DNA of 64,000 nt, from positions 62,001 through 126,000 of IMG/VR virus record IMGVR_UViG_3300036766_002288; one strand, written 5' to 3'. The translations under genes and the position numbers were made by a program. Source of the DNA: a virus. Of this stretch, positions 4,741 through 19,837 are shown piece by piece; the first letter of the stretch is position 1; each line of letters begins with the position of its first letter. The notes beneath the pieces are model-generated. The model did no database searches. It saw only the letters and a program-made list of their open reading frames with translations, and was not told the DNA's origin.

Positions 4741-4823
4741 GGTAGGTTCGGCATTGGCAAGCCAGCTTATTTCGAAAATAAGTAAACCGAAAGGTTTTGA
4801 GAATTCAACTTTCTCACCTACCG
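4741..4823 (+). tRNA. tRNA-Ser(CGA)
   Basis: Perfect 7-bp acceptor stem GGTAGGT/ACCTACC, anticodon arm CTTAT-TTCGAAA-ATAAG giving anticodon CGA (codon UCG), a long class II variable arm (AAACC-GAAA-GGTTT) and T arm GAGAA-TTCAACT-TTCTC. No CCA is encoded. First member of the array. Confidence 0.9.
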
Positions 4824-4852
4824 CTATACCTTAGTTGTACTGACTAAGGAAA

Positions 4853-4938
4853 GGGTGCTGTTCCACACGCTTGTCTGTAAAACAAGTGCCATTAATATGT
4901 GTGGTGGATGGCGATGGGTTCAAATCCTACGGTGCCCA
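4853..4938 (+). tRNA. Aberrant tRNA-Tyr(GTA)-like gene
   Basis: The acceptor GGGTGCT/GGTGCCC pairs with four Watson-Crick and three G-T pairs, and the anticodon arm CTTGT-CTGTAAA-ACAAG gives GTA (Tyr). The D region is only about 10 nt and lacks the GG of a normal D loop. The variable region is 26 nt, and its GTGTGG can pair with CCACAC in the D region. It may be a degenerate copy of the normal Tyr tRNA just downstream or an unusual fold. Confidence 0.55.
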
Positions 4939-4946
4939 CTTGAAAT

Positions 4947-5029
4947 GTAGCGTTTGGGCATTGGCAAGCCCCACTGACTGTAAATCAGCCGCCCTATGGG
5001 CATTGTAGATTCGACTCCTGCACGCTGCA
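4947..5029 (+). tRNA. tRNA-Tyr(GTA)
   Basis: Acceptor GTAGCGT/ACGCTGC with one T-G pair, a D loop with GG, anticodon loop CTGTAAA (GTA), class II variable arm GCCC-TAT-GGGC, T loop TTCGACT and discriminator A. Some stem mismatches (first T-stem pair A/C) suggest relaxed constraint. Confidence 0.85.
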
Positions 5030-5036
5030 CTGACTT

Positions 5037-5125
5037 GGAGTAAATTGAAAGTGGCTATTCTAATCACTCCGCTAAAGTGACAGGTGGGGAAACCCGCCTT
5101 GTGAGTTCGACGCTCACTTACTCCG
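5037..5125 (+). tRNA. tRNA-Ser(GCT)
   Basis: Perfect acceptor GGAGTAA/TTACTCC, anticodon stem TCACT/AGTGA with loop CCGCTAA (anticodon GCT), long variable arm AGGTGGG-GAAA-CCCGCCT and T arm GTGAG-TTCGACG-CTCAC. Position 33 is C instead of the near-universal T, which is unusual. Confidence 0.85.
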
Positions 5126-5126
5126 C

Positions 5127-5155
5127 TTCAATAAATTTTCCAAAAATTTATTGAA
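5127..5155 (+). repeat. Perfect 13-bp hairpin upstream of the first HNH gene
   Basis: TTCAATAAATTTT (5127-5139) and its exact complement (5143-5155) flank a 3-nt loop. It begins 2 nt after the Ser tRNA. A related hairpin precedes the second HNH gene at 7070-7095, so it may be part of the mobile cassette. It lacks the GC content of a typical terminator. Confidence 0.75.
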
Positions 5156-5158
5156 CGG

Positions 5159-5187
5159 TTACTCTTGTATTATTATACAAGGAGTAA
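5159..5187 (+). promoter_or_regulatory. Hairpin sequestering the ribosome binding site of an HNH endonuclease
   Basis: TTACTCTTGTAT (5159-5170) pairs with ATACAAGGAGTAA (5175-5187), leaving one bulged G. The 3' arm contains the AAGGAG Shine-Dalgarno 6 nt before the ATG at 5191. This resembles the RBS-occluding hairpins known for T4 homing endonucleases such as I-TevI. Confidence 0.65.
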
Positions 5188-5190
5188 TCT

Positions 5191-5742
5191 ATGAAAAATT
5201 TAGAAGTCGAAATTATGACATTAAGGGAAGATGGGCATTCTTACAACGCCATAGCAAAAAAACTAAATTGTTCTAAAGGCACAATTAGTTATTATTGCGG
5301 TGAAGGACAAAAACAAAAAAGTAAAACAAGGATTCAGAATAGAAGAAAAAATACTGTAATTTCGAAACGTGTTGAAAACTTTCAAATTGATAGAAAAATA
5401 AGAGACAAATCTGAAGATTTTCAACGGGAAAGAATAATTGTTAAGAGTAAAACTCGTTTAGGCAAACGGTCTTTGACATTTACTTGGAGAGATGTAATTG
5501 ATAAATTCGGATGGGAAACAATATGTTATCTAACTGGAAGGGCTATAAATTTAAGAGAGCCGAAAACTTATCAGTTTGACCATATACATCCTTACGGCAA
5601 AGGAGGAAGTTCAACTTTAGATAATTTAGGTATTCTTATTAAAGAAGTAAATCAAGCTAAGGCAGACATGACCGTTGAAGAATTTTTAAATCTATGTAAA
5701 GACGTTTTGGAATATAATGGCTATGAAGTAAAACGTTTGTAA
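5191..5742 (+). CDS. HNH homing endonuclease
   Basis: A 183-residue free-standing homing endonuclease. Residues about 1-35 form a helix-turn-helix (EDGHSYNAIAKKLNCSKGTI) that would bind the target. The C-terminal HNH core has CYLTGRAINL, the FDHIHPYGKGG segment (catalytic His) and the DNLG-x-L-x-K-E-x-N helix. It sits between tRNA genes, and a paralogue with the same architecture lies at 7116. Its ribosome site is in a hairpin, suggesting restricted expression. Confidence 0.88.
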   Translation: MKNLEVEIMTLREDGHSYNAIAKKLNCSKGTISYYCGEGQKQKSKTRIQNRRKNTVISKRVENFQIDRKIRDKSEDFQRERIIVKSKTRLGKRSLTFTWRDVIDKFGWETICYLTGRAINLREPKTYQFDHIHPYGKGGSSTLDNLGILIKEVNQAKADMTVEEFLNLCKDVLEYNGYEVKRL

Positions 5743-5760
5743 ATGGAAGCTTCCGCTTAT

Positions 5761-5834
5761 GGCACAGTAGGCAATTAGCAGACCACTTTCGCTTAAAACG
5801 AGAGATGCTGTCAGTGCAAATCTGACCTGTGCTA
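5761..5834 (+). tRNA. tRNA-Leu(TAA) with short variable loop
   Basis: Acceptor GGCACAG/CTGTGCT, anticodon stem CTTTCG/CGAGAG and loop CTTAAAA (anticodon TAA). Length is only 74 nt because the variable region is about 5 nt, whereas bacterial Leu tRNAs have a long class II arm. The T loop reads TGCAAAT instead of TTC, and the D loop lacks GG. First of three tandem copies. Confidence 0.78.
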
Positions 5835-5838
5835 CTTT

Positions 5839-5912
5839 GGCGACGTAGGCAATTAGCAGACCACTTAGACTCAGACTCTGAGATGCTGTCAGTGCAAGTC
5901 TGACCGTCGCTA
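5839..5912 (+). tRNA. tRNA-Leu(CAG) with short variable loop
   Basis: A 74-nt tRNA, acceptor GGCGACG/CGTCGCT, anticodon stem CTTAGA/TCTGAG, loop CTCAGAC (anticodon CAG). The D region is identical to the neighbours at 5761 and 5919. The anticodon stem differs from both but stays paired, which argues that it is functional. T loop TGCAAGT. Confidence 0.78.
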
Positions 5913-5918
5913 CTTTTT

Positions 5919-5992
5919 GGCAACGTAGGCAATTAGCAGACCACTTTCTTTCAAACGGAGAGATGCTATGGGTGCGAGTCCCATCGTTGCTA
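5919..5992 (+). tRNA. tRNA-Leu(CAA) with short variable loop
   Basis: A 74-nt tRNA, acceptor GGCAACG/CGTTGCT, anticodon stem CTTTCT/GGAGAG, loop TTCAAAC (anticodon CAA), T arm ATGGG-TGCGAGT-CCCAT. Same aberrant D loop and TGC T loop as the two preceding genes. A coding sequence starts 2 nt after its 3' end. Confidence 0.78.
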
Positions 5993-5994
5993 CT

Positions 5995-6168
5995 ATGATA
6001 CCTAGACGTTTCAGAATACTATCTTCGTCCTCAATTATGACAGAATTAGGGATCAAAGACACCTATGGTGTTTTCTTTCCTGACTTTGGCACATTCATTA
6101 TAATGTCTGAAGAAAGAGGAATAGATGAGTTTGATGGTTGTCCCGAAGATGTTGAGTGGTTGGACTAG
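5995..6168 (+). CDS. Small hypothetical protein following a tRNA
   Basis: A 57-residue acidic protein whose ATG lies 2 nt after the tRNA-Leu(CAA) discriminator base, with no Shine-Dalgarno. If the tRNA is cut out of a common transcript, the mRNA would start CTATG. The last 30 residues contain several Asp/Glu. No family recognised. An internal Met (MTELGIKDTY) is an alternative start. Confidence 0.5.
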   Translation: MIPRRFRILSSSSIMTELGIKDTYGVFFPDFGTFIIMSEERGIDEFDGCPEDVEWLD

Positions 6169-6175
6169 ATAGTAT

Positions 6176-6922
6176 ATGGCTATTTTCCTAGAACATGTGA
6201 ATAAGCGAGATTTAAATAAAAGATTATTTGAAACTTTTGGCAAGTACAAAGTCTTCATTGTAGACGGCCAAGCCATTAGAAAACTTAATCTAACTGACCA
6301 TGAGTTTACTGATTCCGCCATCCATGCTACCTTTCCTAAATTAATACCAGATAAGGAAATATGGATAGATGATGTAATCAAACCGAATGAAAGATTTATA
6401 TTGATAAGTAATTTACTATCATTATACAAGTATTTAAGTAAAGAATCCTTGGACAAAGCTTATGATAAAGCATTGAAAAAAGAAAAGTCGATGAGGGAAA
6501 AGGTAGACAACGTAAGATTACATCCAGAAAAAACGAATGAAAGAGCGTCACCGAAGGTTTACAAGAGTCTATATGGTAAGATTGGAGATGTTAAGATTTG
6601 GTTGGTAGATGGGGAATACGTAAGAGATAAGTATAAGACAGATTATACCGAAGGTGGACACGATTACGTATACAAATGGATTCCACACAATGAAATTTGG
6701 ATTGAGTCCACAATGCATAAGTCTGAAATGCCTTTGATCGTTTTACATGAATTTGTGGAAAGAACATTGATGAAGACCAAGGGAATAGAGTATGATAAGG
6801 CACATACGATTGCATCGAAAGTGGAATTTGCAAAAGAAGATAAGTTTGATAGGAACGATGTTTTATCCATGACTGAGGATAAGGCATTGAAGATGGACGA
6901 GACGCGAGTGGTTAGCAACTGA
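6176..6922 (+). CDS. Duplicated HE-x-x-ER protein (metallopeptidase-like), function unknown
   Basis: A 248-residue protein with two related halves: residues about 25-105 (VFIVDGQAIRK, EIWIDD, then a helical region) and 130-215 (IWLVDGEYVRD, EIWIEST). The second half has LHEFVER followed by YDKAHTIAS, an HExxE-type putative metal site found in small phage and bacterial proteins; the first half has lost the His. The last 9-10 codons run into the tRNA-Ser at 6895, so the C-terminus may have been replaced when the tRNA arrived. Confidence 0.65.
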   Translation: MAIFLEHVNKRDLNKRLFETFGKYKVFIVDGQAIRKLNLTDHEFTDSAIHATFPKLIPDKEIWIDDVIKPNERFILISNLLSLYKYLSKESLDKAYDKALKKEKSMREKVDNVRLHPEKTNERASPKVYKSLYGKIGDVKIWLVDGEYVRDKYKTDYTEGGHDYVYKWIPHNEIWIESTMHKSEMPLIVLHEFVERTLMKTKGIEYDKAHTIASKVEFAKEDKFDRNDVLSMTEDKALKMDETRVVSN

Positions 6923-6977
6923 TTTTGAAAATCAGGGGACCGAAAGGTTCTGTGGGTTCGAATCCCATCTCGATCCG
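6895..6977 (+). tRNA. tRNA-Ser(TGA), copy 1
   Basis: Anticodon arm CTGAT-TTTGAAA-ATCAG (TGA), class II variable arm with GACC-GAAA-GGTT, T arm GTGGG-TTCGAAT-CCCAT, discriminator G. The acceptor pairs as GGA-CGAG with CTCG-A-TCC, so one base of the 3' strand is unpaired. It overlaps the end of the preceding coding sequence by 28 nt. Confidence 0.82.
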
Positions 6978-6980
6978 CTT

Positions 6981-7067
6981 GGAGCGTTGGCAGAGTGGCT
7001 GAATGCGCTAGTCTTGAAAACTAGAGTCCCCTCACGGGGACCGAGGGTTCAAATCCTTCACGCTCCG
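6981..7067 (+). tRNA. tRNA-Ser(TGA), copy 2
   Basis: Perfect acceptor GGAGCGT/ACGCTCC, D loop with GG, anticodon arm CTAGT-CTTGAAA-ACTAG (TGA), variable arm GTCCCC-TCAC-GGGGAC, T arm with TTCAAAT, discriminator G. A fully canonical class II tRNA, 3 nt after a second Ser(TGA) gene. Confidence 0.93.
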
Positions 7068-7069
7068 TA

Positions 7070-7114
7070 CAATAAAATTATCATAATTTTTATTGAACCC
7101 TAACTATGTTAGGG
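7070..7114 (+). promoter_or_regulatory. Two hairpins upstream of the second HNH gene
   Basis: CAATAAAATTAT (7070-7081) pairs with ATAATTTTTATTG (7083-7095) with one extra T. CCCTAAC (7098-7104) pairs with GTTAGGG (7108-7114), ending one base before the ATG. The arrangement parallels the two hairpins before the HNH gene at 5191, pointing to shared post-transcriptional control. Confidence 0.6.
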
Positions 7115-7115
7115 C

Positions 7116-7640
7116 ATGAAAGAACAAATATTAAAACTCCGTGCAGAAGGTTTGTCTTATAGGGAAATCTGTGCCCGATTAGACTGCTCAAAAAGTGTAG
7201 TGTCCTACCATTGTGGGGATGGACAAAAAGTAAAAACTAGGATTAGGGCACAAAAAAGACGAGGCAGGGCGGTTGTAGATAATAAAATTTATAGATTCAA
7301 AAATAAAAAAGCCTTGAGAGACAAAACGAACGATTTCCAACGAAGAGAAGGGGGCAAGCTTAAAATTAGAAAAATTATTTTTAATTATGAAGATGTAATG
7401 CAAAAATTTGGAGAAACCCCTATATGCTATTTAACGGGAAGAGAAATAAATTTAGAAGACACAAAAAACTATCACTTTGACCATATTATACCAGCAACGC
7501 GCGGCGGCTCAAACGATATAGATAATTTAGGACTAGCGTGTAAAGAAGCAAATAAAGCTAAGTCAGATATGACAATAAATGAGTTTATACAAATTTGTAA
7601 AGAAGTATTAGAGCATAATGGTTACAGGGTAATTAAGTAA
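7116..7640 (+). CDS. HNH homing endonuclease, paralogue of the 5191 gene
   Basis: 174 residues with the same order as the gene at 5191: N-terminal helix-turn-helix (EGLSYREICARLDCSKSVV), a basic linker, then the HNH core with CYLTGREINLED, FDHIIPATRGG and DNLGLACKEANKAKSDMT. It lies between tRNA-Ser genes. There is no strong Shine-Dalgarno; a hairpin abuts the start codon. Probably a mobile cassette that targets tRNA loci. Confidence 0.88.
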   Translation: MKEQILKLRAEGLSYREICARLDCSKSVVSYHCGDGQKVKTRIRAQKRRGRAVVDNKIYRFKNKKALRDKTNDFQRREGGKLKIRKIIFNYEDVMQKFGETPICYLTGREINLEDTKNYHFDHIIPATRGGSNDIDNLGLACKEANKAKSDMTINEFIQICKEVLEHNGYRVIK

Positions 7641-7642
7641 TT

Positions 7643-7729
7643 GGACGGTTTGGACATTGGCAAGTCCCCTTAGTTGGAAACTAAGTACACCCGAAAGGGT
7701 GTGTAGAGTTCGAATCTCTAACCGCTCCG
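7643..7729 (+). tRNA. tRNA-Ser(GGA)
   Basis: Anticodon arm CTTAG-TTGGAAA-CTAAG (GGA), class II variable arm ACACCC-GAAA-GGGTGT, T arm TAGAG-TTCGAAT-CTCTA, discriminator G. The acceptor pairs as GGA-CGGT with ACCG-C-TCC, leaving one unpaired 3'-strand base, the same irregularity as in the Ser tRNA at 6895. Confidence 0.82.
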
Positions 7730-7734
7730 CTTAT

Positions 7735-7811
7735 GGCGCAGTGATGCAACCTTCGGCAGACATTCTTGACTTAGAATCAAGATTATATGGGTTCGAATCC
7801 CATCTGCGCTA
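7735..7811 (+). tRNA. tRNA-Leu(TAG) with short variable loop
   Basis: Acceptor GGCGCAG/CTGCGCT, a D region ending in the Leu-like GGCAGACA, anticodon arm CTTGA-CTTAGAA-TCAAG (TAG), variable loop of about 5 nt, canonical T arm ATGGG-TTCGAAT-CCCAT. Fourth Leu tRNA here without the long variable arm. Confidence 0.8.
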
Positions 7812-7827
7812 GTATAATAGTGAAAAT

Positions 7828-7910
7828 GCGGTAGTGGCGGAACGGTATACGCGCTTGCTTGAGGTGCAAGTCCCTTAAGTGGGATGTGGGTTCGACTCCC
7901 ACCTACCGCA
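7828..7910 (+). tRNA. tRNA-Leu(GAG)
   Basis: Perfect acceptor GCGGTAG/CTACCGC, Leu-type D arm, anticodon arm CTTGC-TTGAGGT-GCAAG (GAG), class II variable arm TCCC-TTAAGT-GGGA, T arm GTGGG-TTCGACT-CCCAC, discriminator A. A coding sequence begins 2 nt later. Confidence 0.93.
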
Positions 7911-7912
7911 CT

Positions 7913-8155
7913 ATGAAAACTACATATTATCGACAATGCAAATTGCAGAAAAAGAACACCTTCCAAACCAGCTATATTCCAGAAGAATTTGCTGTTATGA
8001 ATAAGATTATTAAACTACGTGACAACAACGTATGGGATGATGGCTGGAAGGTCATCGCAGTTAGTTCTTCACGGCACGCAGATGATAACCTGCCTGACTC
8101 TCATTCTTCAATTAAGGCACATCGTAGGGCAACTGGTGATTCACAAAGGAAATAA
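7913..8155 (+). CDS. Conserved small phage protein
   Basis: An 80-residue protein starting MKTTYYRQCKLQKK, with YIPEEFA, KIIKLRD and GWKVIAV segments typical of a small beta-type protein seen in many phages. Its ATG is 2 nt after the tRNA-Leu(GAG) 3' end with no Shine-Dalgarno. An upstream in-frame ATG lies inside the tRNA and is unlikely to be used. Function unknown. Confidence 0.65.
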   Translation: MKTTYYRQCKLQKKNTFQTSYIPEEFAVMNKIIKLRDNNVWDDGWKVIAVSSSRHADDNLPDSHSSIKAHRRATGDSQRK

Positions 8156-8156
8156 T

Positions 8157-8441
8157 ATGTGTTTCATATATGATGAATACGCCGAACTTTACAAAGAAAA
8201 AGACGTAAAGGCAAAAAAAGAACACAAATGTTCTGAATGCGCCAGAACTATCTTTAAAAATGAGACGTATCAATATATTTTCACAATATTTCAAGGTGAT
8301 GCGACCACTACAAAGATTTGTTCAGATTGCAAGGATAAAAGACAAAAAATACATGATATAGAGATTAGTCATGGATGTAGCGAAAATGAATCTTGGCCTC
8401 CTTTAGGCGAACTAAGGGAATATTTACAACATTATGAATGA
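8157..8441 (+). CDS. Small zinc-binding protein
   Basis: 94 residues with two Cys pairs (CSEC at about 26-29 and CSDC at about 57-60) forming a likely zinc ribbon, then an acidic C-terminal helix with a PPLGELREYL segment. The start follows AAAGGAAA. It is 2 nt from the upstream stop, so the two form an operon. Function unknown; similar small zinc proteins are common in phages. Confidence 0.7.
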   Translation: MCFIYDEYAELYKEKDVKAKKEHKCSECARTIFKNETYQYIFTIFQGDATTTKICSDCKDKRQKIHDIEISHGCSENESWPPLGELREYLQHYE

Positions 8442-8462
8442 TATATACTGTAAAGGAGTATC

Positions 8463-8660
8463 ATGGACAAGCGTGAATACCGACAACTAAAAAGGACTTT
8501 AAAAAAAGAAGGCAACAAAAAGGCACGAAAAAAACTTAAAAATGACTTAAGAGACAATCCTGAAGAAACCCATTGGTCAGAGATAGATTACGGCAACTGT
8601 AAGACCGAAGATATGAAAAAATACAGCAGAGGACATGAAGATGAATATAGGTCTATTTGA
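8463..8660 (+). CDS. Small basic hypothetical protein
   Basis: 65 residues, very Lys/Arg-rich in the first 30 (KREYRQLKRTLKKEGNKKAR), then acidic with an ETHWSEIDYG segment. It starts 7 nt after AAAGGAG; a TATATA box lies further upstream. Its end overlaps the following nucleotidase gene by 26 nt. Function unknown; the basic part may bind nucleic acid. Confidence 0.6.
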   Translation: MDKREYRQLKRTLKKEGNKKARKKLKNDLRDNPEETHWSEIDYGNCKTEDMKKYSRGHEDEYRSI

Positions 8661-9210
8661 TATGGACGGTAGCTTAGCTGATTATGAAGGTCAACTAAGG
8701 AAGGATTTGACCAAATGTCTTGGTGAAGAAGATTTGAAAAAGTTCGATGAGTTAGGCATGTGGAAAGCTGACGACCAAGAACCATTTAAATCACTCATTA
8801 GACTGATTAAGAATCAACCTTGTTGGTGGAAGAATCTCCCAGTAATGCAGAAAGGACTGGATATTTTCCACCTTGCTGTGCAGATTGGTTTTAAGAACCA
8901 TATTTTAACTAAGGGTCCAAAACATTATCCAAGGGCGTGGAAAGAAAAAGTTGAATGGTCTCAGCATTTATTTGGCAAGGATATTGACATTCATATAACA
9001 TCGGATAAAGGGTTAGTTTACGGCAGATTTTTATATGACGATTATCCTGATTATATGTTAAAATGGCTTGGGAGGCGTCCAAGGGGTTTGGGTATTATGC
9101 CAGTGAACAATTTCAATAAGGATTTTAACCATCCACAGGTAATTAAATGGGATGGAATAAACTATGATGAAGTGAAGGAAGCGTTGATAAAATGTTTCAA
9201 TAGGGGCTAA
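8635..9210 (+). CDS. 5'(3')-deoxyribonucleotidase-like HAD phosphatase
   Basis: 191 residues with HAD motif I FDMDGSLADYE (nucleophile Asp, residues about 8-18), a helical cap, motif II LTKGP (about 102) and motif IV LYDDYPDYM (about 140). Length and the D-x-D-G-S-L-A-D form fit the NT5C-type deoxynucleotidases that trim nucleotide pools. Two in-frame ATGs (8635 and 8641) are possible. The stop codon lies within a tRNA-like remnant. Confidence 0.75.
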   Translation: MKMNIGLFDMDGSLADYEGQLRKDLTKCLGEEDLKKFDELGMWKADDQEPFKSLIRLIKNQPCWWKNLPVMQKGLDIFHLAVQIGFKNHILTKGPKHYPRAWKEKVEWSQHLFGKDIDIHITSDKGLVYGRFLYDDYPDYMLKWLGRRPRGLGIMPVNNFNKDFNHPQVIKWDGINYDEVKEALIKCFNRG

Positions 9211-9231
9211 GTGGCAAAACGGTATACGCAG
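9203..9231 (+). pseudogene. Remnant of a Leu tRNA 5' half
   Basis: The sequence GGGGCTAAGTGGCAAAAC followed by GGTATACGCAG matches the acceptor and D arm of the Leu tRNAs at 9752 and 10780, then breaks off. It ends shortly before an HNH gene whose other side is an intact tRNA-Leu, suggesting insertion next to, or duplication of, a tRNA by the endonuclease cassette. Confidence 0.6.
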
Positions 9232-9255
9232 AAATAAAAATTAAAACGTGTTTAC

Positions 9256-9261
9256 TATATT
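9256..9261 (+). promoter_or_regulatory. Late-type TATATT box
   Basis: Lies 5 nt upstream of the ATG at 9267, with no Shine-Dalgarno between. Same geometry as the TAWATA boxes found elsewhere in the window. Confidence 0.45.
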
Positions 9262-9266
9262 AGTTG

Positions 9267-9749
9267 ATGAGAAAAAGAAAATGGAATGACGAGCAATTAA
9301 TAGAAGCTGTTAAAACAAGCAAATCGGTGATGGAAGTATTGAAAAAAATTGGCTTAGGTTTAAGTGGTGGCTCCCATGCTTTGGTAAAAATGAGGATTAA
9401 ACATCTTAAAATTGATAATTCTCATTTTACAGGAAAAGGATGGTGCAGAGGGGAAAAGCACGAGGAATTCATTAAGCGAGTACTTCAGTATCCTTTAGAA
9501 CAAGTTTTAGTCAGAGATTCAACTTATCAGAACACACATGCCTTGAAAAAAAGACTTATAAAAGAAGGATTATTAATAAACGAATGTTGTAATTGTAAAC
9601 TAACCACATGGCTCAATGAGCCTATCAGTTTACAATTACATCATAAAGATGGAGATAGATGTAATAATTTGATTGGAAATCTATCAATACTATGTCCAAA
9701 TTGTCATAGTCAAACATCTACATTTGCAGGTAAGAGTAAAAGAAAATAA
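9267..9749 (+). CDS. HNH homing endonuclease (second subfamily)
   Basis: 160 residues. The N-terminal half has a K-x-S-K-SVMEVLKKIGLGLSGGSH segment that looks like a NUMOD/HTH target-binding module. The HNH core has a C-x-x-C zinc knuckle (CCNCKLTTW), LHHKDGDRCNN (catalytic His) and the ILCPNCHSQT finger. It is paralogous to the gene at 16380. A TTG three bases upstream is in frame but the ATG is preferred. It is flanked by a Leu tRNA remnant and an intact Leu tRNA. Confidence 0.88.
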   Translation: MRKRKWNDEQLIEAVKTSKSVMEVLKKIGLGLSGGSHALVKMRIKHLKIDNSHFTGKGWCRGEKHEEFIKRVLQYPLEQVLVRDSTYQNTHALKKRLIKEGLLINECCNCKLTTWLNEPISLQLHHKDGDRCNNLIGNLSILCPNCHSQTSTFAGKSKRK

Positions 9750-9751
9750 AC

Positions 9752-9832
9752 GGCCAAGTGGCGGAATGGTATACGCGGCACACTCAAAATGTGTTGTCCT
9801 TGGGCATGTGGGTTCGACTCCCACCTTGGCTA
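9752..9832 (+). tRNA. tRNA-Leu(CAA)
   Basis: Acceptor GGCCAAG/CTTGGCT, Leu-type D arm, anticodon stem GCACA/TGTGT with loop CTCAAAA (CAA), class II variable arm, T arm GTGGG-TTCGACT-CCCAC, discriminator A. A coding sequence begins 3 nt downstream. Confidence 0.9.
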
Positions 9833-9835
9833 CTT

Positions 9836-10861: not shown

Positions 10862-10865
10862 CTAT

Positions 10866-11000: not shown

Positions 11001-11003
11001 CCA

Positions 11004-11567
11004 ATGGAAAGAACTGAACTAACTGATGGCGGATACATATTGTATCAACCAGATTTCTATAATACAAAAATCGCAGATAATCTCTTCAACTTGTTACTAG
11101 ATGTTCCCTGGAAACAAGAGACATTTTCTTGGGGCAAATTTCCTAGACTCACATCTTATTACGCCGATGAAGGTGTAAAATATGAATATTCTGGAGTCAC
11201 CCACAAAGCTTTGGTATGGCCAGGAATTCTCTCAGCGGTAAAAGATAAAACTCAACAAGTTGTTGGTGAGAAATTTAACAGTCTATTGTTAAATTTCTAC
11301 AGGGATGGTGCGGATTCTATTGGCTGGCATTCAGATGATGAGAAAGAATTAGGAATAAATCCAATCATTGCATCTATTTCATTGGGTGCTGAAAGAACAT
11401 TCAATGTTAGGCACAAAAGAACTAAGGAAAAGTGGTCTATAGTTTTAAAGAATGGAAGTTTAATAGTTATGGGTGGTACAATGCAACATCATTGGCAGCA
11501 TTGTGTGCCAAAGACAACCAAGCCAGTTTTTGCAAGAATAAACCTTACTTTTAGGAACATTTTATGA
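11004..11567 (+). CDS. AlkB-like 2OG-Fe(II) dioxygenase
   Basis: 187 residues matching ALKBH2/3-type nucleic acid demethylases, which remove alkyl groups from DNA or RNA bases using iron and 2-oxoglutarate. The conserved LLNFYRDGADSIGWHSDDE segment contains the H-x-D iron ligands (about residues 111-113). The distal His lies in the HHWQHCVPK region, and the 2OG-binding Arg in the C-terminal ARINLTFR. The family length is usual. A repair role for the phage genome or tRNAs is inferred. Confidence 0.9.
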   Translation: MERTELTDGGYILYQPDFYNTKIADNLFNLLLDVPWKQETFSWGKFPRLTSYYADEGVKYEYSGVTHKALVWPGILSAVKDKTQQVVGEKFNSLLLNFYRDGADSIGWHSDDEKELGINPIIASISLGAERTFNVRHKRTKEKWSIVLKNGSLIVMGGTMQHHWQHCVPKTTKPVFARINLTFRNIL

Positions 11568-14900: not shown

Positions 14901-15454
14901 GGTATATGGATACGATCCATTATTTCTGCTGTTTCTGGATTTTGTAAATTTCTTAAAGCGAGTGTGTAATTCCTTAGTAAACTTGCTTCTTTTGGACCGA
15001 GTTCCTTTTTCACTCTTTCAATTAAAAGTTTAGGCTTATTTCTTTCACTATCATATAAGTGTCTTAATTCGGCGGAAATAGAAAACATAACTGCTTCCAA
15101 TAGTTCCTTTTTAAGGGCTGGCAGTAGTTTATTGCCTACTTCATATAGAGCATGATAGAATTTGTCCTCTACGGTCATGGACATATCACCATAATGTCTC
15201 GTATCTGGTGGAAGTCCTTTTTCTTCTCTTTCTTTATTCTGAAGTGCATTAGCTTTTTCTGTATCTTCTCCACCAAAATCCATTGGTTTTAGATACATGT
15301 GAATACCAGGCGGAAGAAGATATTCGAGCATGTAAAAGTCGTACATTTGCTGTTGTCTATCTTCTGGGACATGGTATGTCCATGAACCAAATACACCTTC
15401 TAGTATTGGATTATAATCTTTTTTATTTAACCAATTAGCGAACTTGTCTAGCAT
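11954..15454 (-). CDS. Giant KOW-repeat protein with L7/L12-like C-terminal helix and capsid-targeting-like N-terminus
   Basis: A 1166-residue protein. It begins MLDKFANWLNKKDYNP, matching the aromatic tag shared by other proteins here. Residues about 10-420 are a largely helical unknown domain. About 440-960 hold nine KOW-like repeats, each about 55 residues, with the pattern VGD-x-V-x-I-x-x-G-x-x-x-G-x-x-G. The C-terminus has a helix (DKIQAIKLAREALGWNLKSA) like the ribosomal L7/L12 C-terminal domain. KOW folds usually bind ribosomes, RNA or RNA polymerase. The start at 15454 follows a TAAATA box by 5 nt and is preferred over an in-frame codon 27 nt upstream. Packaging and a translation or transcription target are inferred. 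Confidence 0.8.
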   Translation of the reverse strand: MLDKFANWLNKKDYNPILEGVFGSWTYHVPEDRQQQMYDFYMLEYLLPPGIHMYLKPMDFGGEDTEKANALQNKEREEKGLPPDTRHYGDMSMTVEDKFYHALYEVGNKLLPALKKELLEAVMFSISAELRHLYDSERNKPKLLIERVKKELGPKEASLLRNYTLALRNLQNPETAEIMDRIHIPTTAKNSDDGYTTSYKALKHAGGTDEEWAKLASWLFYNAKWGSSYGGKAWGGIADGWTHLNDAETPNKIIAYIDHVYDLQHNTGSVFTKLKSYRKDNKYDWIQKSLDHKRDLVSPHEMFEHISPSMREVAKIGIKLKTGKTFLDFEKDWPEILKKKAEIYNQMQQSQYEKKKAEHEKNYPNDTYWESKPKDITPEQYASQHIINQSVSSPVTGNYGPAPYSMGQVNQEYWAKVNKGKPVPQPTYTGTPINQPPHPSDVDIGDKVKIIGGSSGYVGQTGTVIDKIYKYDFPYFNVEFADKPTKAFKRHRFEVVEKKASSFPDEKGNKVGDHVIITHGTYNGSKGVLKSYNGHSWSVLVTMPHGGEADEQWYSSDYFKKDDSASGGKSLLGLKVGDHVTIKYGSHKGMKGFIKNIKAAEDPYPYQVDLGLVNLIPYSNYDLQKDEKTRPSYKVGDPVIITNGDYKGKKGEIVTSTSTEGVWIVAVESPLDSKKQNLYFSQGDLKKDDSVKEKEDFKAGDPIKVKNGLHTGKKGKFKHKTENGNYMVTLGSSDSPYLFYKNDIELDKSPTPEVGDIVKVIDGSFAGFTGTVKVNHGTNYTIALDIAFGGKQDQILAPNQFEITGKKGQSKTFEIGATVKVTGGEHNGITGVVKEKIVGDNLYKIKSGGAGYEYLVHAGNLQLVAPVAAGSKKDFKVGDFVKVKDGMYAGLTGHITKTYTGAYKDNMVHIKFDDGGEAPIKVVNIELSSKPKKEFKNGDPVKIINGYHKGMVGTIVYKIPQSDFEHGYSVKFPSGGSYAIEADDMELATAPAPIDTGAKIIDSLKNSFNPLKAFLFPMDLKVARAIISTKYYNPSYPIEDILTKVNAALGANYSPNQLFDIKKTYLKELAIQKYFDAKTIYAISPLSQEKAHEIMVQHYHDMPGKPFLDKKTIMDMESKIEQGDKIQAIKLAREALGWNLKSAKEYIEYLTFELATNGIYIKKVSG

Positions 15455-15459
15455 TGTAA

Positions 15460-15465
15460 TATTTA
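15460..15465 (-). promoter_or_regulatory. Late-type TAAATA box
   Basis: On the minus strand CATAAATA ends 5 nt before the ATG at 15454. Closest match here to the T4 late consensus TATAAATA (7 of 8). No Shine-Dalgarno. Confidence 0.6.
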
Positions 15466-15490
15466 TGTTCTTTTCTCTCAATTTTGTTGG

Positions 15491-15496
15491 TAAATA
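15491..15496 (+). promoter_or_regulatory. Late-type TAAATA box
   Basis: TAAATA followed by CTAAA and the ATG at 15502. Back-to-back with the box for the opposing KOW gene. No Shine-Dalgarno. Confidence 0.6.
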
Positions 15497-15501
15497 CTAA
15501 A

Positions 15502-16347
15502 ATGAGTGTGTCACTTGATGAGTTAGTTAATTGTGATGGGCAATTAGTCTATGCTATTGATGAAGAAGAGAACGTCTACATAGGTATTTTGTATTATAAA
15601 CCAGAGAACGGTGAATTTTCGGTTGAAATTTGGGAAGATTCGTGCTGCGCGATGGCAATAATGACTCCAGACGACCTTATTTACTTAATTTGTAATAATC
15701 CTAGCGGAACAGTAATAACATTCTTTGACCCAGACTTGTTTGATTTAAATACGACTTGGACAGTTCCTGATGGTATTTTTTCTGTATTTGTCGAATGCTG
15801 GGGCGCGGGTGGATATGGCAATACTAATATTAGTGGTGCATTTGGAGGTGGTGGAGGTGGTGGGGGTGCTTACGCTGCTAGTATAGTGTCAGTAATGCCT
15901 GGAGATGTTTATAGTATAACGATTACAAATACTAATTGTAATCCTAACTTCGTTTCAACCATATTTGGGTCAAATTTAGTTACTGCTGCTGCGGGGAGTT
16001 GTGCTAATGCTCTTGGCATAGGTGGGGCAGGCGGGCAAGTGGCAGATAGTATAGGCACTACTAGATTTGCTGGTGGAAATGGTGGGGATGGGGACACATC
16101 TGTTGGAGGTAGTGGCGGCGGTGGTGGGGCATGTGCAGGGCCAGGTGGACCAGGAAATGCTGGGGCAATTGTCACTGGTGGTGTCGGAGATGGTGATTTA
16201 GCAGGCAGTGGCGGGGCAGGAGCGGCATTGCCTGCAACTCCTGCCGATTTTGGTGGACTTTATGGTGGAGGTGGAGGTGGTGGAGCAAGTGGTGGAGCAA
16301 TAGAAGGAGCAAATGGACCCCCAGGAATTATTCGTTTAACATATTGA
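15502..16347 (+). CDS. Glycine-rich adhesin/tail-fibre-like protein
   Basis: 281 residues. Residues 1-85 form a unique acidic domain (YAIDEEENVYIGILYY). The rest is one glycine-rich module: a W-T-V-P strand (TTWTVPDGIFSVFVECWGAGG), long poly-Gly runs, MPGDVYSITIT and the closing GIIRLTY. Such modules occur in phage tail-fibre tips and adhesins and probably stack as polyglycine II helices. The same module is repeated in the 20238-24821 protein. The start follows a TAAATA box by 5 nt; an upstream TTG is rejected. Confidence 0.75.
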   Translation: MSVSLDELVNCDGQLVYAIDEEENVYIGILYYKPENGEFSVEIWEDSCCAMAIMTPDDLIYLICNNPSGTVITFFDPDLFDLNTTWTVPDGIFSVFVECWGAGGYGNTNISGAFGGGGGGGGAYAASIVSVMPGDVYSITITNTNCNPNFVSTIFGSNLVTAAAGSCANALGIGGAGGQVADSIGTTRFAGGNGGDGDTSVGGSGGGGGACAGPGGPGNAGAIVTGGVGDGDLAGSGGAGAALPATPADFGGLYGGGGGGGASGGAIEGANGPPGIIRLTY

Positions 16348-16371
16348 CATTCTTGATTTTTGTGCTATATA
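16344..16371 (+). promoter_or_regulatory. Sigma70-like promoter of the HNH gene at 16380
   Basis: TTGACA (16344-16349), 16-bp spacer, TATATA (16366-16371), 8 nt from the ATG. Combines a consensus -35 with a late-like -10. Confidence 0.6.
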
Positions 16372-16379
16372 TTAATTAG

Positions 16380-16910
16380 ATGAAATACACCAAGGAACTA
16401 CTTGAGGCCATAGTAAAAGAAAGCTTATCAGTAGCCCAAGTTATAAAGAAATTAGGACTAAAACAAGCTGGTGGTACGCATCATTACATTTCAAAAAAGC
16501 TTAAGTGCTTTGAAATTAATGTTGAGCATTTTACTGGACGCGCAAGTAACCACGGAGACATGCATAAAGGTGGCCCAGCTAAAAGAACGTGGCAAGAAAT
16601 ACTAGTTTTAAGAGAAGATGGTAAAAGACAAAGAGCATTTGTATTAAGACGTGCATTGATTGAATCTGGAAGCAATTACGAATGCAGTATATGTAATATT
16701 AAAGAATGGTTTGGCAAGACAATAATTCTAGAAGTAGACCATCTAAATGGCGATTATTGTGATGACAGAAAAGAAAATATAAGATTTATGTGCCCGAATT
16801 GTCATAGTCAATCACCTAAATATTGTGGCAGTAAGGGTTACACAACTATAACTAGCACTGCCAAATCGCAGAAAGAAAGAAGGAAGAGAGTACAGTTGGC
16901 CAAGTGGTGA
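16380..16910 (+). CDS. HNH homing endonuclease, paralogue of the 9267 gene
   Basis: 176 residues: N-terminal target-binding module (SVAQVIKKLGLKQAGGTHH), then an HNH core with CSICNIKEWF, VDHLNGDYCDD (catalytic His) and FMCPNCHSQS. The stop codon TGA lies inside the D arm of the tRNA at 16898, so the gene ends within the tRNA. No Shine-Dalgarno; the promoter -10 is 8 nt upstream. A tRNA-associated homing cassette. Confidence 0.88.
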   Translation: MKYTKELLEAIVKESLSVAQVIKKLGLKQAGGTHHYISKKLKCFEINVEHFTGRASNHGDMHKGGPAKRTWQEILVLREDGKRQRAFVLRRALIESGSNYECSICNIKEWFGKTIILEVDHLNGDYCDDRKENIRFMCPNCHSQSPKYCGSKGYTTITSTAKSQKERRKRVQLAKW

Positions 16911-17001
16911 AATGGCATACACGCAGGTCTTATTGGTTAAACAACCAGCAATAGAAGCCTGTGCCCGTAAGGGCGTGCGGGTTCAAGTCCCGCCTTGGCC
17001 A
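16898..17001 (+). tRNA. tRNA-Leu with a 21-nt insertion in the anticodon loop
   Basis: Perfect acceptor GGCCAAG/CTTGGCC, class II variable arm GCCC-GTAA-GGGC and T arm GCGGG-TTCAAGT-CCCGC. The anticodon stem CAGGT/GCCTG encloses 28 nt instead of 7. Removing 21 nt that begin ATTG and end CAAT leaves loop CTTAGAA, identical to the Leu(TAG) gene at 7735. The insert can itself fold (ATTG-GTT-AAAC-AAC-CAG-CAAT). Far too short for a group I intron. Isotype is inferred from the trimmed loop. Confidence 0.75.
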
Positions 17002-17005
17002 CTTT

Positions 17006-17341
17006 ATGAGTCGATACGGATTTGATTTAGATGGAACTCTTGATGTTCCTTCCATAGCACAACTCGCCAATGATTTATATGACGCAGGACACGAAATATA
17101 CATAGTCACAGGTGGGTTTGGCGATCATGGAGAATGGACAATTTCTGAGCGCGAAAAGAAATTAGCCAGACTTGGTGTTAAATACACAGAAATCATTCGT
17201 TGTTTAAAACCCTCTTTTGAAGAAATTGGTAAAGAGAAAGGTCGTATTTGCAAAGAAAGAAAAATTTCTTTGTTATTTGACGACTCAGAAACTTATATCC
17301 AGCAATCTAAAGGGGCGGTCCAATGTCTGAAAGTGATCTAA
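17006..17341 (+). CDS. HAD-like phosphatase
   Basis: 111 residues with HAD motif I FDLDGTLDVP (residues about 6-15), motif II IVTGG (about 33) and a motif IV-like LLFDDSETYI (about 91). The cap is minimal, as in small phage HAD proteins; substrate unknown. The ATG is 4 nt after the tRNA 3' end with no Shine-Dalgarno. Overlaps the next gene by 19 nt. Confidence 0.7.
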   Translation: MSRYGFDLDGTLDVPSIAQLANDLYDAGHEIYIVTGGFGDHGEWTISEREKKLARLGVKYTEIIRCLKPSFEEIGKEKGRICKERKISLLFDDSETYIQQSKGAVQCLKVI

Positions 17342-17553
17342 AACAACTTATTCTTGAAAAAGGCGGCGTAGCTGCCATTAAACATTACCGTGAAATCAAT
17401 AAATGCAATTTAAAAGAAGCAGTCCAAGCAATAGATTCACTTGGCCCATTGCCACGTATCTTTAAATCAACTACTCCATGTCCAGATTGTGGCAAATTGC
17501 TTAGAACAGATTTAGCAAAACAATGTTTTGAATGTGGAAAGGATTGGCATTAA
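17323..17553 (+). CDS. Small L7/L12-C-terminal-like zinc-ribbon protein
   Basis: 76 residues. Residues about 13-45 (GVAAIKHYREINKCNLKEAV) resemble the ribosomal L7/L12 C-terminal helix that contacts translation factors. A zinc ribbon follows (CPDCGK at about 53 and CFECGK at about 68). The same L7/L12-like element ends the giant KOW protein. A ribosome-related role is inferred only from this similarity. Confidence 0.6.
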   Translation: MSESDLKQLILEKGGVAAIKHYREINKCNLKEAVQAIDSLGPLPRIFKSTTPCPDCGKLLRTDLAKQCFECGKDWH

Positions 17554-17874
17554 ATGGAACTTCATGGTTCAGATTTAGTTTTTGAGAATGTGAAAGTACC
17601 AATTTCAGAAGATTTGGTTATACCTATAATCAAAACTCACTGGCCTGAGTTGGTCTACGAAGCAATGATGGAAAATGGTGATCTGCACTTGTTCATGCAC
17701 CCAAATCAACACGCTGAAGAATCTTGGGACGATGAAGGTTGGTCTGAAGAAAATGACATAACTTTGATTTACATGATTTGGGATGAATCGAAGGCTGAAC
17801 TGACTTTTGTGATTGACGATGAGAAGAAAAACAAGTATATCGTAGATGACATACAGAAAGGTCTTGGGTTCTAA
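17554..17874 (+). CDS. Hypothetical acidic protein
   Basis: 106 residues, strongly acidic, with beta strands (DITLIYMIWDESKAELTFVI). It starts immediately after the upstream stop codon (TAAATG), indicating coupling. No family recognised. Confidence 0.55.
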   Translation: MELHGSDLVFENVKVPISEDLVIPIIKTHWPELVYEAMMENGDLHLFMHPNQHAEESWDDEGWSEENDITLIYMIWDESKAELTFVIDDEKKNKYIVDDIQKGLGF

Positions 17875-17877
17875 ATC

Positions 17878-18315
17878 ATGCGATGGCTCTTACTTGCTTT
17901 ACTCTGCGTAGGTTGTGCAGAACTACCTTCTGCCAAAGAAAAAGAAGAAGAATTGCAAATACGTAAAAAAAGACACGATGCTGAGTGTGAGGAATGGCGG
18001 ACGAGAATTTTTGATGTAGTTAAGGTTTCGACGGAAGAAGATAAAAAATACACTGAGTCTATGCTGCATTGGTTGAATACTAATCTAGATGATCCTGATA
18101 TTGTTCAGTGGATTAGTAAGGAATACTCCAGATGCAAAAAGTATGGTACGTCAAAAACTGAAATTCTTGTAAAGATTAGGGTAATTGATAGTCAAGGGAT
18201 CAAAAAGATTCACGAGTATTATTTCATATTCGACTTTGACAAAATCCAAAATGCCTACCCCAGATATACTCACCCAAGAAAAATTACCATTATACCACCA
18301 CCCTACTTAGGTTAA
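17878..18315 (+). CDS. Putative lipoprotein
   Basis: 145 residues. The first 15 (MRWLLLALLCVGCAE) look like a lipoprotein signal with a lipobox-like VGC, although position -3 is not the usual Leu. A charged helical region (KEKEEELQIRKKRHDAECEEW) follows, then a mixed domain. Probably anchored in a host membrane. Function unknown. Confidence 0.55.
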   Translation: MRWLLLALLCVGCAELPSAKEKEEELQIRKKRHDAECEEWRTRIFDVVKVSTEEDKKYTESMLHWLNTNLDDPDIVQWISKEYSRCKKYGTSKTEILVKIRVIDSQGIKKIHEYYFIFDFDKIQNAYPRYTHPRKITIIPPPYLG

Positions 18316-18316
18316 C

Positions 18317-18532
18317 ATGGTTGACTACGAAGGATTTCACCTTAATCAGGCAAGTGCTTTTCTCCAGTTTATCCGCACTGGCGAGAAGTTTGGGTATAGT
18401 AAATGTTGTGTATTTCAATTTGCATCTGACTCAATATCCGATAAATTGCCGTTTAAACTACGTGGTCTCATAAAAAGAGAAGATGGGAAAATCTACGTTC
18501 CATGTGACTCCTGTACAGGGTTAAGATTATGA
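18317..18532 (+). CDS. Small Cys-containing hypothetical protein
   Basis: 71 residues with FGYSKCCVFQF in the middle and PCDSC near the end, a Cys arrangement seen in small phage proteins that bind a metal. It starts 1 nt after the upstream stop and is coupled to the next gene by ATGA overlap. Function unknown. Confidence 0.55.
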   Translation: MVDYEGFHLNQASAFLQFIRTGEKFGYSKCCVFQFASDSISDKLPFKLRGLIKREDGKIYVPCDSCTGLRL

Positions 18533-18750
18533 AAGATGCTGTAACCATCTACTATTGTGGTCAAGGTTGTATCTATCGGTGTCCAGAGTGCCATAAGGCG
18601 GATAGATTGCCCTATGACAGGCCACCTGCTACAAAAACATGTCGTTTTTGTGAAAAAGAATTTGAACTCATACAAGTAAGTTCAATGAACGATGAATTGT
18701 ATGGAGTCATTCAAGAAATTAATGCTCCTGATGCTTATTGGGAAGATTAA
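18529..18750 (+). CDS. Small zinc-ribbon protein
   Basis: 73 residues with Cys pairs C-x-x-x-C/CPEC (about 10-21) and CRFC (about 38-41), consistent with a zinc ribbon, then an acidic tail. Part of a run of small Cys-rich genes in the same direction. Function unknown. Confidence 0.55.
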   Translation: MKDAVTIYYCGQGCIYRCPECHKADRLPYDRPPATKTCRFCEKEFELIQVSSMNDELYGVIQEINAPDAYWED

Positions 18751-18751
18751 T

Positions 18752-18919
18752 ATGTTTTGCTGGCTATTTGGACATACAATATACGTTGAAGATATGGGCG
18801 GCACTCTTATAGAATGCTGCGAGTGTTGTAATTGGGTTGGCAGATATGTAAATTACGATATAGAGGTTAAACATGAACGAGACCCTGATAAGGAAAGAAA
18901 AACTTCCGAAGGGACTTAG
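18752..18919 (+). CDS. 55-residue Cys-rich hypothetical protein
   Basis: Begins MFCWLFGHTIY and has the Cys cluster ECCECCNW (about 21-28), then a charged tail. The ATG at 18752 is preferred over an earlier in-frame codon because it lies directly after the upstream stop. Overlaps the next gene by 47 nt. Function unknown. Confidence 0.5.
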   Translation: MFCWLFGHTIYVEDMGGTLIECCECCNWVGRYVNYDIEVKHERDPDKERKTSEGT

Positions 18920-19361
18920 CTATCCTTTACAGACACAGGATATTGTTAATGGATTACATACTGAGTCCTTGGCCATTTTTTACCGTTATGATTGTAGTAA
19001 CCCAGGAAAAATGAACAAATGGACTGTAATAGATTTATTTGACTTACATTGTTATCCTGATAAAACTAGGACTCTCGTAGGTAATAATTTTTCTATAGGT
19101 ATCACTTCAATCGAATCTAAGTTAAGGAAAAAATTTAGAGAAATACTGTGTAAGGAAGTGTTGCCACTTGCAAAGACATGGCAGGAATTGAACAACAAGG
19201 GAAAAAATTTATCTGTTCATTATCGAGTATTTCAGGATGACTATCTAGGTTATGGCGGCATATATATGGAAGAAAACCGATATGGGCCTAAAAAGAAAAT
19301 CTTATATCGGAATGATAGCTTTAACATAGATGAAGATTTAAAGGTGATTTATGAAAAATAA
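18873..19361 (+). CDS. Hypothetical protein
   Basis: 162 residues, mixed charge. It includes a central WTVIDLFDLHCYPDKT region, a basic helix (ESKLRKKFREILCKEVL) and a Gly/Tyr-rich YLGYGGIYME segment. No family recognised. Starts inside the preceding gene in another frame. Confidence 0.5.
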   Translation: MNETLIRKEKLPKGLSYPLQTQDIVNGLHTESLAIFYRYDCSNPGKMNKWTVIDLFDLHCYPDKTRTLVGNNFSIGITSIESKLRKKFREILCKEVLPLAKTWQELNNKGKNLSVHYRVFQDDYLGYGGIYMEENRYGPKKKILYRNDSFNIDEDLKVIYEK

Positions 19362-19365
19362 CAAA

Positions 19366-19408
19366 CTCCGTGGGTGCGAGAAGCATAAGTTTTTCTCACA
19401 CTACGGAG
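19366..19408 (+). promoter_or_regulatory. Hairpin covering a ribosome binding site
   Basis: CTCCGT (19366-19371) pairs with ACGGAG (19403-19408), and inside it GTG-GAGAA pairs with TTCTC-CAC with small bulges. The 3' arm contains most of the GGAGG Shine-Dalgarno for the gene at 19415, so translation could be conditionally blocked. Confidence 0.5.
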
Positions 19409-19414
19409 GTTTCT

Positions 19415-19708
19415 ATGAAAAGGTGGCACGAAGAGTATAATGTCTTTCATCGTCAGTGGAAGATACATCGCAAGTCTCACGTTGAGTCTAATAAGGACTC
19501 AAGTAGAAATCGTATTGGCAAAGACCCATACGAAGTCGATTGTAGTTGCGATGAGCAGGTAGGTCGTTTCAGGAAAATGGATGCTTGGGATTGTGGCAAT
19601 CCACACTGTCAGGTGTGCCATTACAACAAATATCCTAAACGGGAATTGACAAATGGTGAAGTAAAGTCTAACATCTCTTTCAAGGAACAGTTGAAGGAAA
19701 GAGATTAG
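19415..19708 (+). CDS. Small zinc-binding hypothetical protein
   Basis: 97 residues, basic N-terminal half (KRWHEEYNVFHRQWKIHRKS), then CSC and C-x-x-x-x-CQVC clusters (about 45-70) consistent with a metal site. The ATG at 19415 is chosen for the GGAGG 5 nt upstream rather than an in-frame codon 45 nt earlier. Function unknown. Confidence 0.6.
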   Translation: MKRWHEEYNVFHRQWKIHRKSHVESNKDSSRNRIGKDPYEVDCSCDEQVGRFRKMDAWDCGNPHCQVCHYNKYPKRELTNGEVKSNISFKEQLKERD

Positions 19709-19713
19709 TTAGT

Positions 19714-19837
19714 GGCCGAATAGTCTAACGGTATGGCGGTAGAATTACATTACGTGGCTTTGGCTGAAAATGCCGATATTATAGTTTCCACATAATCCCT
19801 AATCTACAGATGGCGGGTTCAATTCCCTCTTCGGCCA
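19714..19837 (+). tRNA. tRNA with a roughly 52-nt insertion in the anticodon loop
   Basis: Perfect acceptor GGCCGAA/TTCGGCC, D arm GTC-TAACGGTAT-GGC with GG, anticodon stem GTAGA/TCTAC, short variable loop AGATG and T arm GCGGG-TTCAATT-CCCTC with one mismatch. The anticodon loop is 59 nt. The 5' side reads ATTACA, which would give UAC (Val) with an insert after position 37; a splice after T33 would give CCT (Arg). The insert folds: TTACGTGG pairs with CCACATAA (one mismatch) around a TTGGC/GCCGA hairpin. Isotype unresolved. Confidence 0.7.

What the first reader, a model, noticed from the sequence alone, without database searches (positions are those of the whole stretch)
4741..19837. A tRNA array devoted almost entirely to class II isotypes
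Of 16 tRNA genes, 8 are Leu (TAA twice, CAA twice, TAG twice, CAG, GAG), 5 are Ser (CGA, GCT, GGA, TGA twice) and 2 are Tyr. Only one, with an insertion, may be class I. Leu, Ser and Tyr are exactly the bacterial tRNAs with long variable arms, and the set can read all Leu, Ser and Tyr codons. Phages usually carry a mix of isotypes. A possible cause is a host nuclease that attacks class II tRNAs; human SLFN11 is known to prefer type II tRNAs, but no bacterial counterpart is implied here.
Basis: partly seen in the sequence, partly recalled or inferred. Interest (0 to 1): 0.85.

Follow-up and report, generated by a model that had tools for sequence, protein, structure and literature searches.

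The report
Leu/Ser/Tyr-only tRNA array, huge phage
This virus of bacteria keeps its transfer RNAs for leucine, serine and tyrosine in an array of their own; in related giant phages that array sits far from a second one holding nearly all other tRNAs, and some of its leucine tRNAs have lost the long extra arm that a review describes as universal outside animal mitochondria.

Summary
In detail: 14 well-supported and 2 doubtful tRNA genes at 4741-19837, all but one with Leu, Ser or Tyr anticodons, and no tRNA elsewhere in the 187-kb record (only a tmRNA). 'Class II' is only partly right: four of the eight Leu tRNAs have no long variable arm. The record is a fragment of a huge phage, collinear with LR756511 (595 kb). 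In 18 related records the matching array holds 206 Leu/Ser/Tyr/Phe tRNAs out of 209. Four larger relatives (436-595 kb) carry about 60 tRNAs in two places: this array, and a distant one with nearly all other isotypes (runs test P<=5e-6 in each). Six unrelated tRNA-rich phages mix the classes. Our fragment stops before the second array, so missing class I tRNAs are no evidence for a class II-specific host nuclease. Best reading: the class II module of a nearly complete phage tRNA set, used in translation; why the classes are kept apart is unresolved. Arm loss occurs in 35 of 106 Leu but 0 of 81 Ser/Tyr tRNAs, and all 38 arm-less Leu examined keep A73, as expected if LeuRS charges them. Defence against arm-targeting toxins is possible, not shown.

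The parts
4741..4823 (+). tRNA-Ser(CGA), long variable arm
   Evidence: ARAGORN
4853..4938 (+). tRNA-Tyr(GTA)-like sequence without a normal D arm; probably degenerate
   Evidence: By eye and folding; no model hit
4947..5029 (+). tRNA-Tyr(GTA), long variable arm
   Evidence: RF00005 34.4 bits; ARAGORN at relaxed threshold
5037..5125 (+). tRNA-Ser(GCT), long variable arm
   Evidence: ARAGORN
5191..5742 (+). HTH+HNH endonuclease gene, ends 18 nt before a tRNA
   Evidence: Pfam HTH_38, HNH_4; 47% identical to 7116-7640
5761..5834 (+). tRNA-Leu(TAA), class I shape, A18/G55
   Evidence: ARAGORN, RF00005 37.0 bits
5839..5912 (+). tRNA-Leu(CAG), class I shape, A18/G55
   Evidence: ARAGORN, RF00005 35.4 bits
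5919..5992 (+). tRNA-Leu(CAA), class I shape, A18/G55
   Evidence: ARAGORN, RF00005 34.9 bits
6895..6976 (+). tRNA-Ser(TGA)-like, weak, overlaps the end of ORF 6176-6922
   Evidence: tRNA-Sec model 32.6 bits, RF00005 25.5 bits
6981..7067 (+). tRNA-Ser(TGA), long variable arm
   Evidence: ARAGORN, RF00005 58.6 bits
7116..7640 (+). HTH+HNH endonuclease gene, ends 2 nt before a tRNA
   Evidence: Pfam HNH_5, HNH
7643..7728 (+). tRNA-Ser(GGA), long variable arm
   Evidence: ARAGORN
7735..7811 (+). tRNA-Leu(TAG), class I shape
   Evidence: RF00005 51.5 bits; cloverleaf-like MFE fold
7828..7910 (+). tRNA-Leu(GAG), long variable arm
   Evidence: ARAGORN, RF00005 57.4 bits
9203..9231 (+). 5' half of a tRNA-Leu only (remnant) upstream of an HNH gene
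   Evidence: By eye
9264..9749 (+). HNH endonuclease gene, ends 2 nt before a tRNA
   Evidence: Weak Pfam HNH_3; 36% identical to 16380-16910
9752..9832 (+). tRNA-Leu(CAA), long variable arm
   Evidence: ARAGORN, RF00005 58.0 bits
10780..10861 (+). tRNA-Leu(TAA), long variable arm
   Evidence: ARAGORN, RF00005 59.6 bits
16380..16910 (+). Gene related to the 9264-9749 HNH gene, overlaps a tRNA 5' end
   Evidence: 36% identical to 9264-9749; 51% to a gene in the G001 array
16898..17001 (+). tRNA-Leu(TAG), long variable arm, anticodon split by a 21-nt hairpin insert
   Evidence: RF00005 45.9 bits; 84-87% identical to LR756511 and G002 Leu-TAG when the insert is disregarded
19714..19837 (+). tRNA-like gene, class I, with a ~54-nt structured insert in the anticodon loop
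   Evidence: RF00005 40.5 bits; related insert in G002 at 84482

Best explanation
The array is the Leu/Ser/Tyr half (array B) of a nearly complete phage-encoded tRNA complement that is split between two loci in a family of huge phages. Its tRNAs most likely work in translation, supplying all Leu, Ser and Tyr decoding during infection, while array A, not covered by this fragment, supplies nearly all other isotypes. Shown: isotype restriction, conservation across 18 records, two-locus architecture in four large relatives, arm-less Leu tRNAs that keep A73. Inferred: expression and charging; that array B is an inherited module whose turnover runs by local duplication, anticodon change and HNH-associated exchange, which tends to keep isotypes within a locus. 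Not explained: why the founding set was exactly the three class II isotypes.
For: Two loci in LR756511, G004, G005, G007: Leu/Ser/Tyr inside array B vs outside 12/2, 14/0, 12/0, 10/0; Fisher P 2e-9 to 9e-12; runs-test P<=5e-6 each. 206 of 209 array-B tRNAs in 18 records are Leu/Ser/Tyr/Phe. Synteny of our record with LR756511 about 505-333 kb and of relatives. Arm loss in 35/106 Leu vs 0/81 Ser+Tyr (Fisher 1.9e-10) and A73 in 38/38, matching LeuRS/SerRS recognition rules. Tandem Leu trio 77-84% alike and four HNH-type genes abutting tRNAs. Relatives encode reduced aaRSs, some inside or beside array B.
Against: No expression, charging or infection data. Array A has not been seen in this phage; relatives of 223-343 kb show mainly array B, but those records look incomplete. 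Local duplication can explain many Leu tRNAs but not why Ser, Tyr and Leu, which are unrelated isotypes, were grouped: a random choice of 3 of 20 isotypes would be this trio once in 1140, and this may be a single ancestral event. LR756511 has two exceptions (Leu-TAA at 6.3 kb, a class I Ser-CGA at 291 kb).
Confidence: 0.72

Rival explanations
1. Counter-defence: the array replaces host class II tRNAs destroyed or blocked by a host factor that reads the long variable arm; arm-less Leu tRNAs are escape forms.
For: Complete Leu/Ser/Tyr decoding set; redundant arm-bearing and arm-less Leu tRNAs with the same anticodon. Precedents: phage tRNAs rescue from retron-Eco7 (tRNA-Tyr) and PrrC; MenT3 reads the tRNA-Ser variable loop.
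Against: Large relatives encode nearly all other isotypes too. Ser and Tyr tRNAs keep long arms (0/81 lost). Phe, a class I tRNA, is often in the array. Arm loss in Leu only is predicted by LeuRS recognition alone. MenT3 itself discriminates against tRNA-Leu. No such host factor is known here; host unknown.
Confidence: 0.12
2. Separate regulation: arrays A and B are transcribed at different times or doses, and class II tRNAs are grouped because they need a different schedule.
For: The arrays stay apart although gene order inside each is reshuffled between relatives.
Against: No promoter or expression evidence; Phe sits in A in LR756511 and in B in others, so membership is not rigid.
Confidence: 0.2
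3. Pure historical accident: array B happened to be acquired with Leu/Ser/Tyr, and array A later filled in the rest.
For: The sets are complementary with almost no redundancy; a single origin suffices.
Against: Chance of exactly this trio is about 1 in 1140 (1 in 285 if one more isotype is allowed), and the restriction survived deep divergence (mean protein identity 43-47% between LR756511 and G003, G004, G007).
Confidence: 0.3
4. Artefact: pseudogenes or false predictions in a fragment.
For: Two of 16 genes are doubtful and two carry inserts.
Against: Strong covariance-model scores for many genes, matching arrays in 17 other records, A73 kept in all arm-less Leu.
Confidence: 0.02

Closest known systems
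tRNA arrays of huge phages (Al-Shayeb et al. 2020, PMC7162821; LR756511 is an uncultured huge-phage record of this kind)
   Same: Up to 67 tRNAs, aaRSs and RNA ligases in huge phages; our record is collinear with LR756511
   Different: In the passages of that paper shown by the search (12 of 15 places mentioning tRNA) I saw no mention of isotype segregation, arm-less tRNA-Leu or inserts
Escherichia phage T5 tRNA region
   Same: Many tRNAs, HNH genes abutting tRNAs, tRNA-like stable RNAs
   Different: Class I and II interleaved (runs test P=0.18)
Phage tRNAs that counter tRNA-cutting defence (PMC11555353, PMC10264068)
   Same: Phage-encoded tRNA supply
   Different: Those are matched to known nucleases; here no nuclease is known and nearly the whole complement is encoded in large relatives
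Animal mitochondrial class I tRNA-Leu
   Same: tRNA-Leu without a long variable arm, A73 kept
   Different: These are phage genes, with long-arm Leu tRNAs kept alongside

Membership tests
Phage tRNA array | Several tRNA genes close together on one strand of a phage genome | tested here: met
   SbcD-like, tail and replication genes in the same record
Phage tRNA array | Mixed isotypes, as usual in tRNA-rich phages | tested here: not met
   206/209 Leu/Ser/Tyr/Phe; mixed in T5, AMO3598, Gravdalen, LR756501, LR756502, LR756504
Class II (long variable arm) tRNA set | Every gene has a long variable arm | tested here: not met
   Leu at 5761, 5839, 5919, 7735 are 74-77 nt; 35/106 Leu in the family
Functional tRNA-Leu | A73 and D-loop/T-loop tertiary contacts | tested here: met
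   A73 in 38/38 arm-less Leu; 18-55 contact kept as G18/U55 or swapped to A18/G55, inferred from sequence
Functional tRNA-Leu | Charged by LeuRS and used on ribosomes | not testable with these tools
   Needs biochemistry
Anti-defence tRNA set | Host nuclease or toxin that attacks the matching host tRNAs | not tested
   Host unknown; CTP synthase search was uninformative

The most novel reading that the evidence does not exclude
Array B is a dedicated, early-expressed answer to a host factor that recognises the long variable arm, kept apart from the other tRNAs for that reason, with arm-less leucine tRNAs as resistant replacements. This would point to a bacterial defence aimed at class II tRNAs as a class.
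Probability: 0.1. Interest if true: 0.88.

Novelty: new variant of a known kind. Interest (0 to 1): 0.6.

Why it matters
It shows that huge phages can organise a nearly complete tRNA set by isotype class in two loci, an architecture I did not find described in the papers searched. It supplies dozens of natural tRNA-Leu genes without the long variable arm, against the general statement that tRNA-Leu carries it everywhere but in animal mitochondria (PMC9976931), and natural A18/G55 swaps, so aminoacylation and tRNA-core rules become testable on natural variants. It also frames a testable question: whether arm-reading toxins drive arm loss.

Tried and rejected
Bacterial class II-specific nuclease as the needed cause: not required once array A was found in relatives. 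Strict class II grouping: rejected because of arm-less Leu and Phe. aaRSs partitioned like their tRNAs: not supported; LeuRS (G003) and PheRS (G005) lie in array B and TyrRS (G001) beside it, but ThrRS and ValRS lie near B too, a GlyRS-like gene lies in B, and SerRS (G005) near A. Arm-less Leu derived from one other isotype: nearest-neighbour test mixed (nearest is class II Leu in 17 of 38). BHB-type archaeal introns for the inserts: no convincing motif and the Tyr tRNAs are bacterial in shape; RNA ligases occur in G002, G005, LR756511 and RtcB in G007 but none was found in our fragment. Rfam names no family for the inserts. Host identification by CTP synthase: inconclusive. Whether 223-343-kb relatives lack array A: undecided; four records share a contig end near LR756511 332-336 kb. 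The tail-sheath-like protein search found no relatives.
Full report
Observation. ARAGORN finds ten tRNAs in the window, all between 4741 and 10862. The Rfam tRNA model adds Tyr 4947, Leu-TAG 7735 and two genes with inserts at 16898 and 19714; a second Ser-TGA at 6895 is weak. A sixteenth, Tyr-like, sequence at about 4853-4938 is visible by eye but lacks a normal D arm and is hit by no model. No tRNA lies elsewhere in the 187,011-base record; only a tmRNA was found. The correction is structural: Leu-TAA 5761, Leu-CAG 5839, Leu-CAA 5919 and Leu-TAG 7735 have short variable loops.

Context. The record is an IMG/VR virus record without end repeats, probably a fragment. Over its length it is collinear with LR756511.1, a 595-kb uncultured huge phage, from about 505 to 333 kb. 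LR756511 has a Leu/Ser/Tyr array at the matching place (427.7-437.5 kb, 12 of 12) and a second array at 233-291 kb with nearly all other isotypes. Our record stops about 42 kb short of the point that corresponds to the second array. Absence of class I tRNAs from the record is thus uninformative.

Relatives. Searches with the neighbouring SbcD-like protein and a helicase brought in about a hundred related loci. In 18 distinct records the array holds Leu 106, Ser 60, Tyr 21, Phe 19 and three others: a Val-anticodon tRNA with a class II body in G001, a CTA-anticodon gene in G005 and one unassigned in L151. Gene order differs between relatives, so the restriction is kept while the array is reshuffled. 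On an SbcD tree the array occurs on both sides of the midpoint root. G004 (436 kb), G005 (533 kb), G007 (527 kb) and LR756511 each have the two-array arrangement; runs tests give P<=5e-6 in each, Fisher tests 2e-9 or lower. Phe lies in array B in G004, G005 and G007 but in array A in LR756511. Controls are mixed: T5 P=0.18, AMO3598 0.47, Gravdalen 0.58; LR756501 0.19, LR756504 0.26 and LR756502 0.41, the last three scored by gene length from a truncated hit list.

Arm-less leucine tRNAs. 35 of 106 Leu genes in these arrays are shorter than 80 nt, against 0 of 60 Ser and 0 of 21 Tyr (Fisher 1.9e-10). Related genes are not independent, so the P value overstates the case. All 38 arm-less Leu sequences examined (some near-duplicates) keep A73. 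A review of identity elements states that E. [quoted passage not shown] The pattern is what working Leu tRNAs under LeuRS recognition would show. Sequences cluster in several groups, nearest to class II Leu in 17 of 38 cases, so arm loss may have happened more than once. Fifteen tRNAs, including the trio at 5761-5992, have G55; all show an AG-type D loop rather than GG, with a few ambiguous, whereas 432 of 434 U55 tRNAs have GG: a natural A18/G55 swap, inferred from sequence.

Surroundings. Four HNH-type genes each end within 18 nt of, or overlap, a tRNA (5191-5742, 7116-7640, 9264-9749, 16380-16910), and a 5' tRNA-Leu remnant lies at 9203. T5 shows the same habit. An AlkB-like 2OG-Fe(II) oxygenase (11004-11567) and a 5'-nucleotidase (8635-9210) adjoin the array here and in LR756511. 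Relatives encode reduced aaRSs: LeuRS of 427 aa in array B of G003, monomeric PheRS in array B of G005, TyrRS beside array B of G001, SerRS without its N-terminal arm in G005. None of the four aaRS families searched was found in our fragment or in LR756511.

Inserts. The 16898 gene matches the lone Leu-TAG of LR756511 and G002 in place and sequence, but a 21-nt hairpin splits its anticodon; whether it is removed is unknown. The 19714 gene and one in G002 share a structured insert of about 54 nt with paired changes, judged on two sequences only; the fold of the window copy is no more stable than shuffles (z -0.7).

Interpretation. What is shown is an inherited, isotype-restricted tRNA locus that forms one half of a split, nearly complete complement in a huge-phage family. 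That it feeds translation is inferred. Why the three class II isotypes were grouped is open: random choice of three isotypes gives this trio once in 1140, but it may be one ancestral event. The counter-defence reading stays possible at low probability; MenT3 shows that a toxin can read the long variable loop, though it prefers tRNA-Ser and discriminates against tRNA-Leu (PMC11541572).

Noticed in passing
window 5761-5992; G001 215-216 kb; G003 126-128 kb; G007 134-136 kb: tRNAs with G55 in the T loop have an AG instead of GG D loop: natural swap of the 18-55 tertiary pair.
   Followed up: partly
window 19714-19837; G002 84482-84605: tRNA-like gene with a ~54-nt structured insert in the anticodon loop, core GGCTGAAAATGCC shared, stems changed on both sides.
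   Followed up: partly
G005 4872, 6212, 14780, 34759: Four different tRNAs carry a shared insert with ATTTGTCC, a tetraloop, GGGAATG and GGGATTACAT.
   Followed up: no
G005 27217; G007 134632: tRNA-like genes with two anticodon-like hairpins: first loop TAT (Ile), second loop with GAT.
   Followed up: no
window 16929-16944 and 31382-31397: 16 nt at the start of the 16898 insert match exactly inside the glutathionylspermidine synthase gene (E=0.001); may be chance.
   Followed up: partly
G000 and G001 3' ends, G002 and G003 5' ends: Four contigs end at the point matching LR756511 332-336 kb; a real genome end or a shared assembly break.
   Followed up: partly
G003 113 kb, G005 47 kb and 482 kb, G003 99 kb, G005 457 kb: Miniature phage aaRSs: LeuRS 427 aa, ValRS about 500 aa, SerRS lacking the N-terminal arm, mitochondrial-type monomeric PheRS.
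   Followed up: partly
L015 13645-13993: tmRNA gene with tag AENTYALAA in the same record.
   Followed up: no
LR756511, G004, G005, G007: Each has at least one tRNA with anticodon CTA (amber) outside array B.
   Followed up: no
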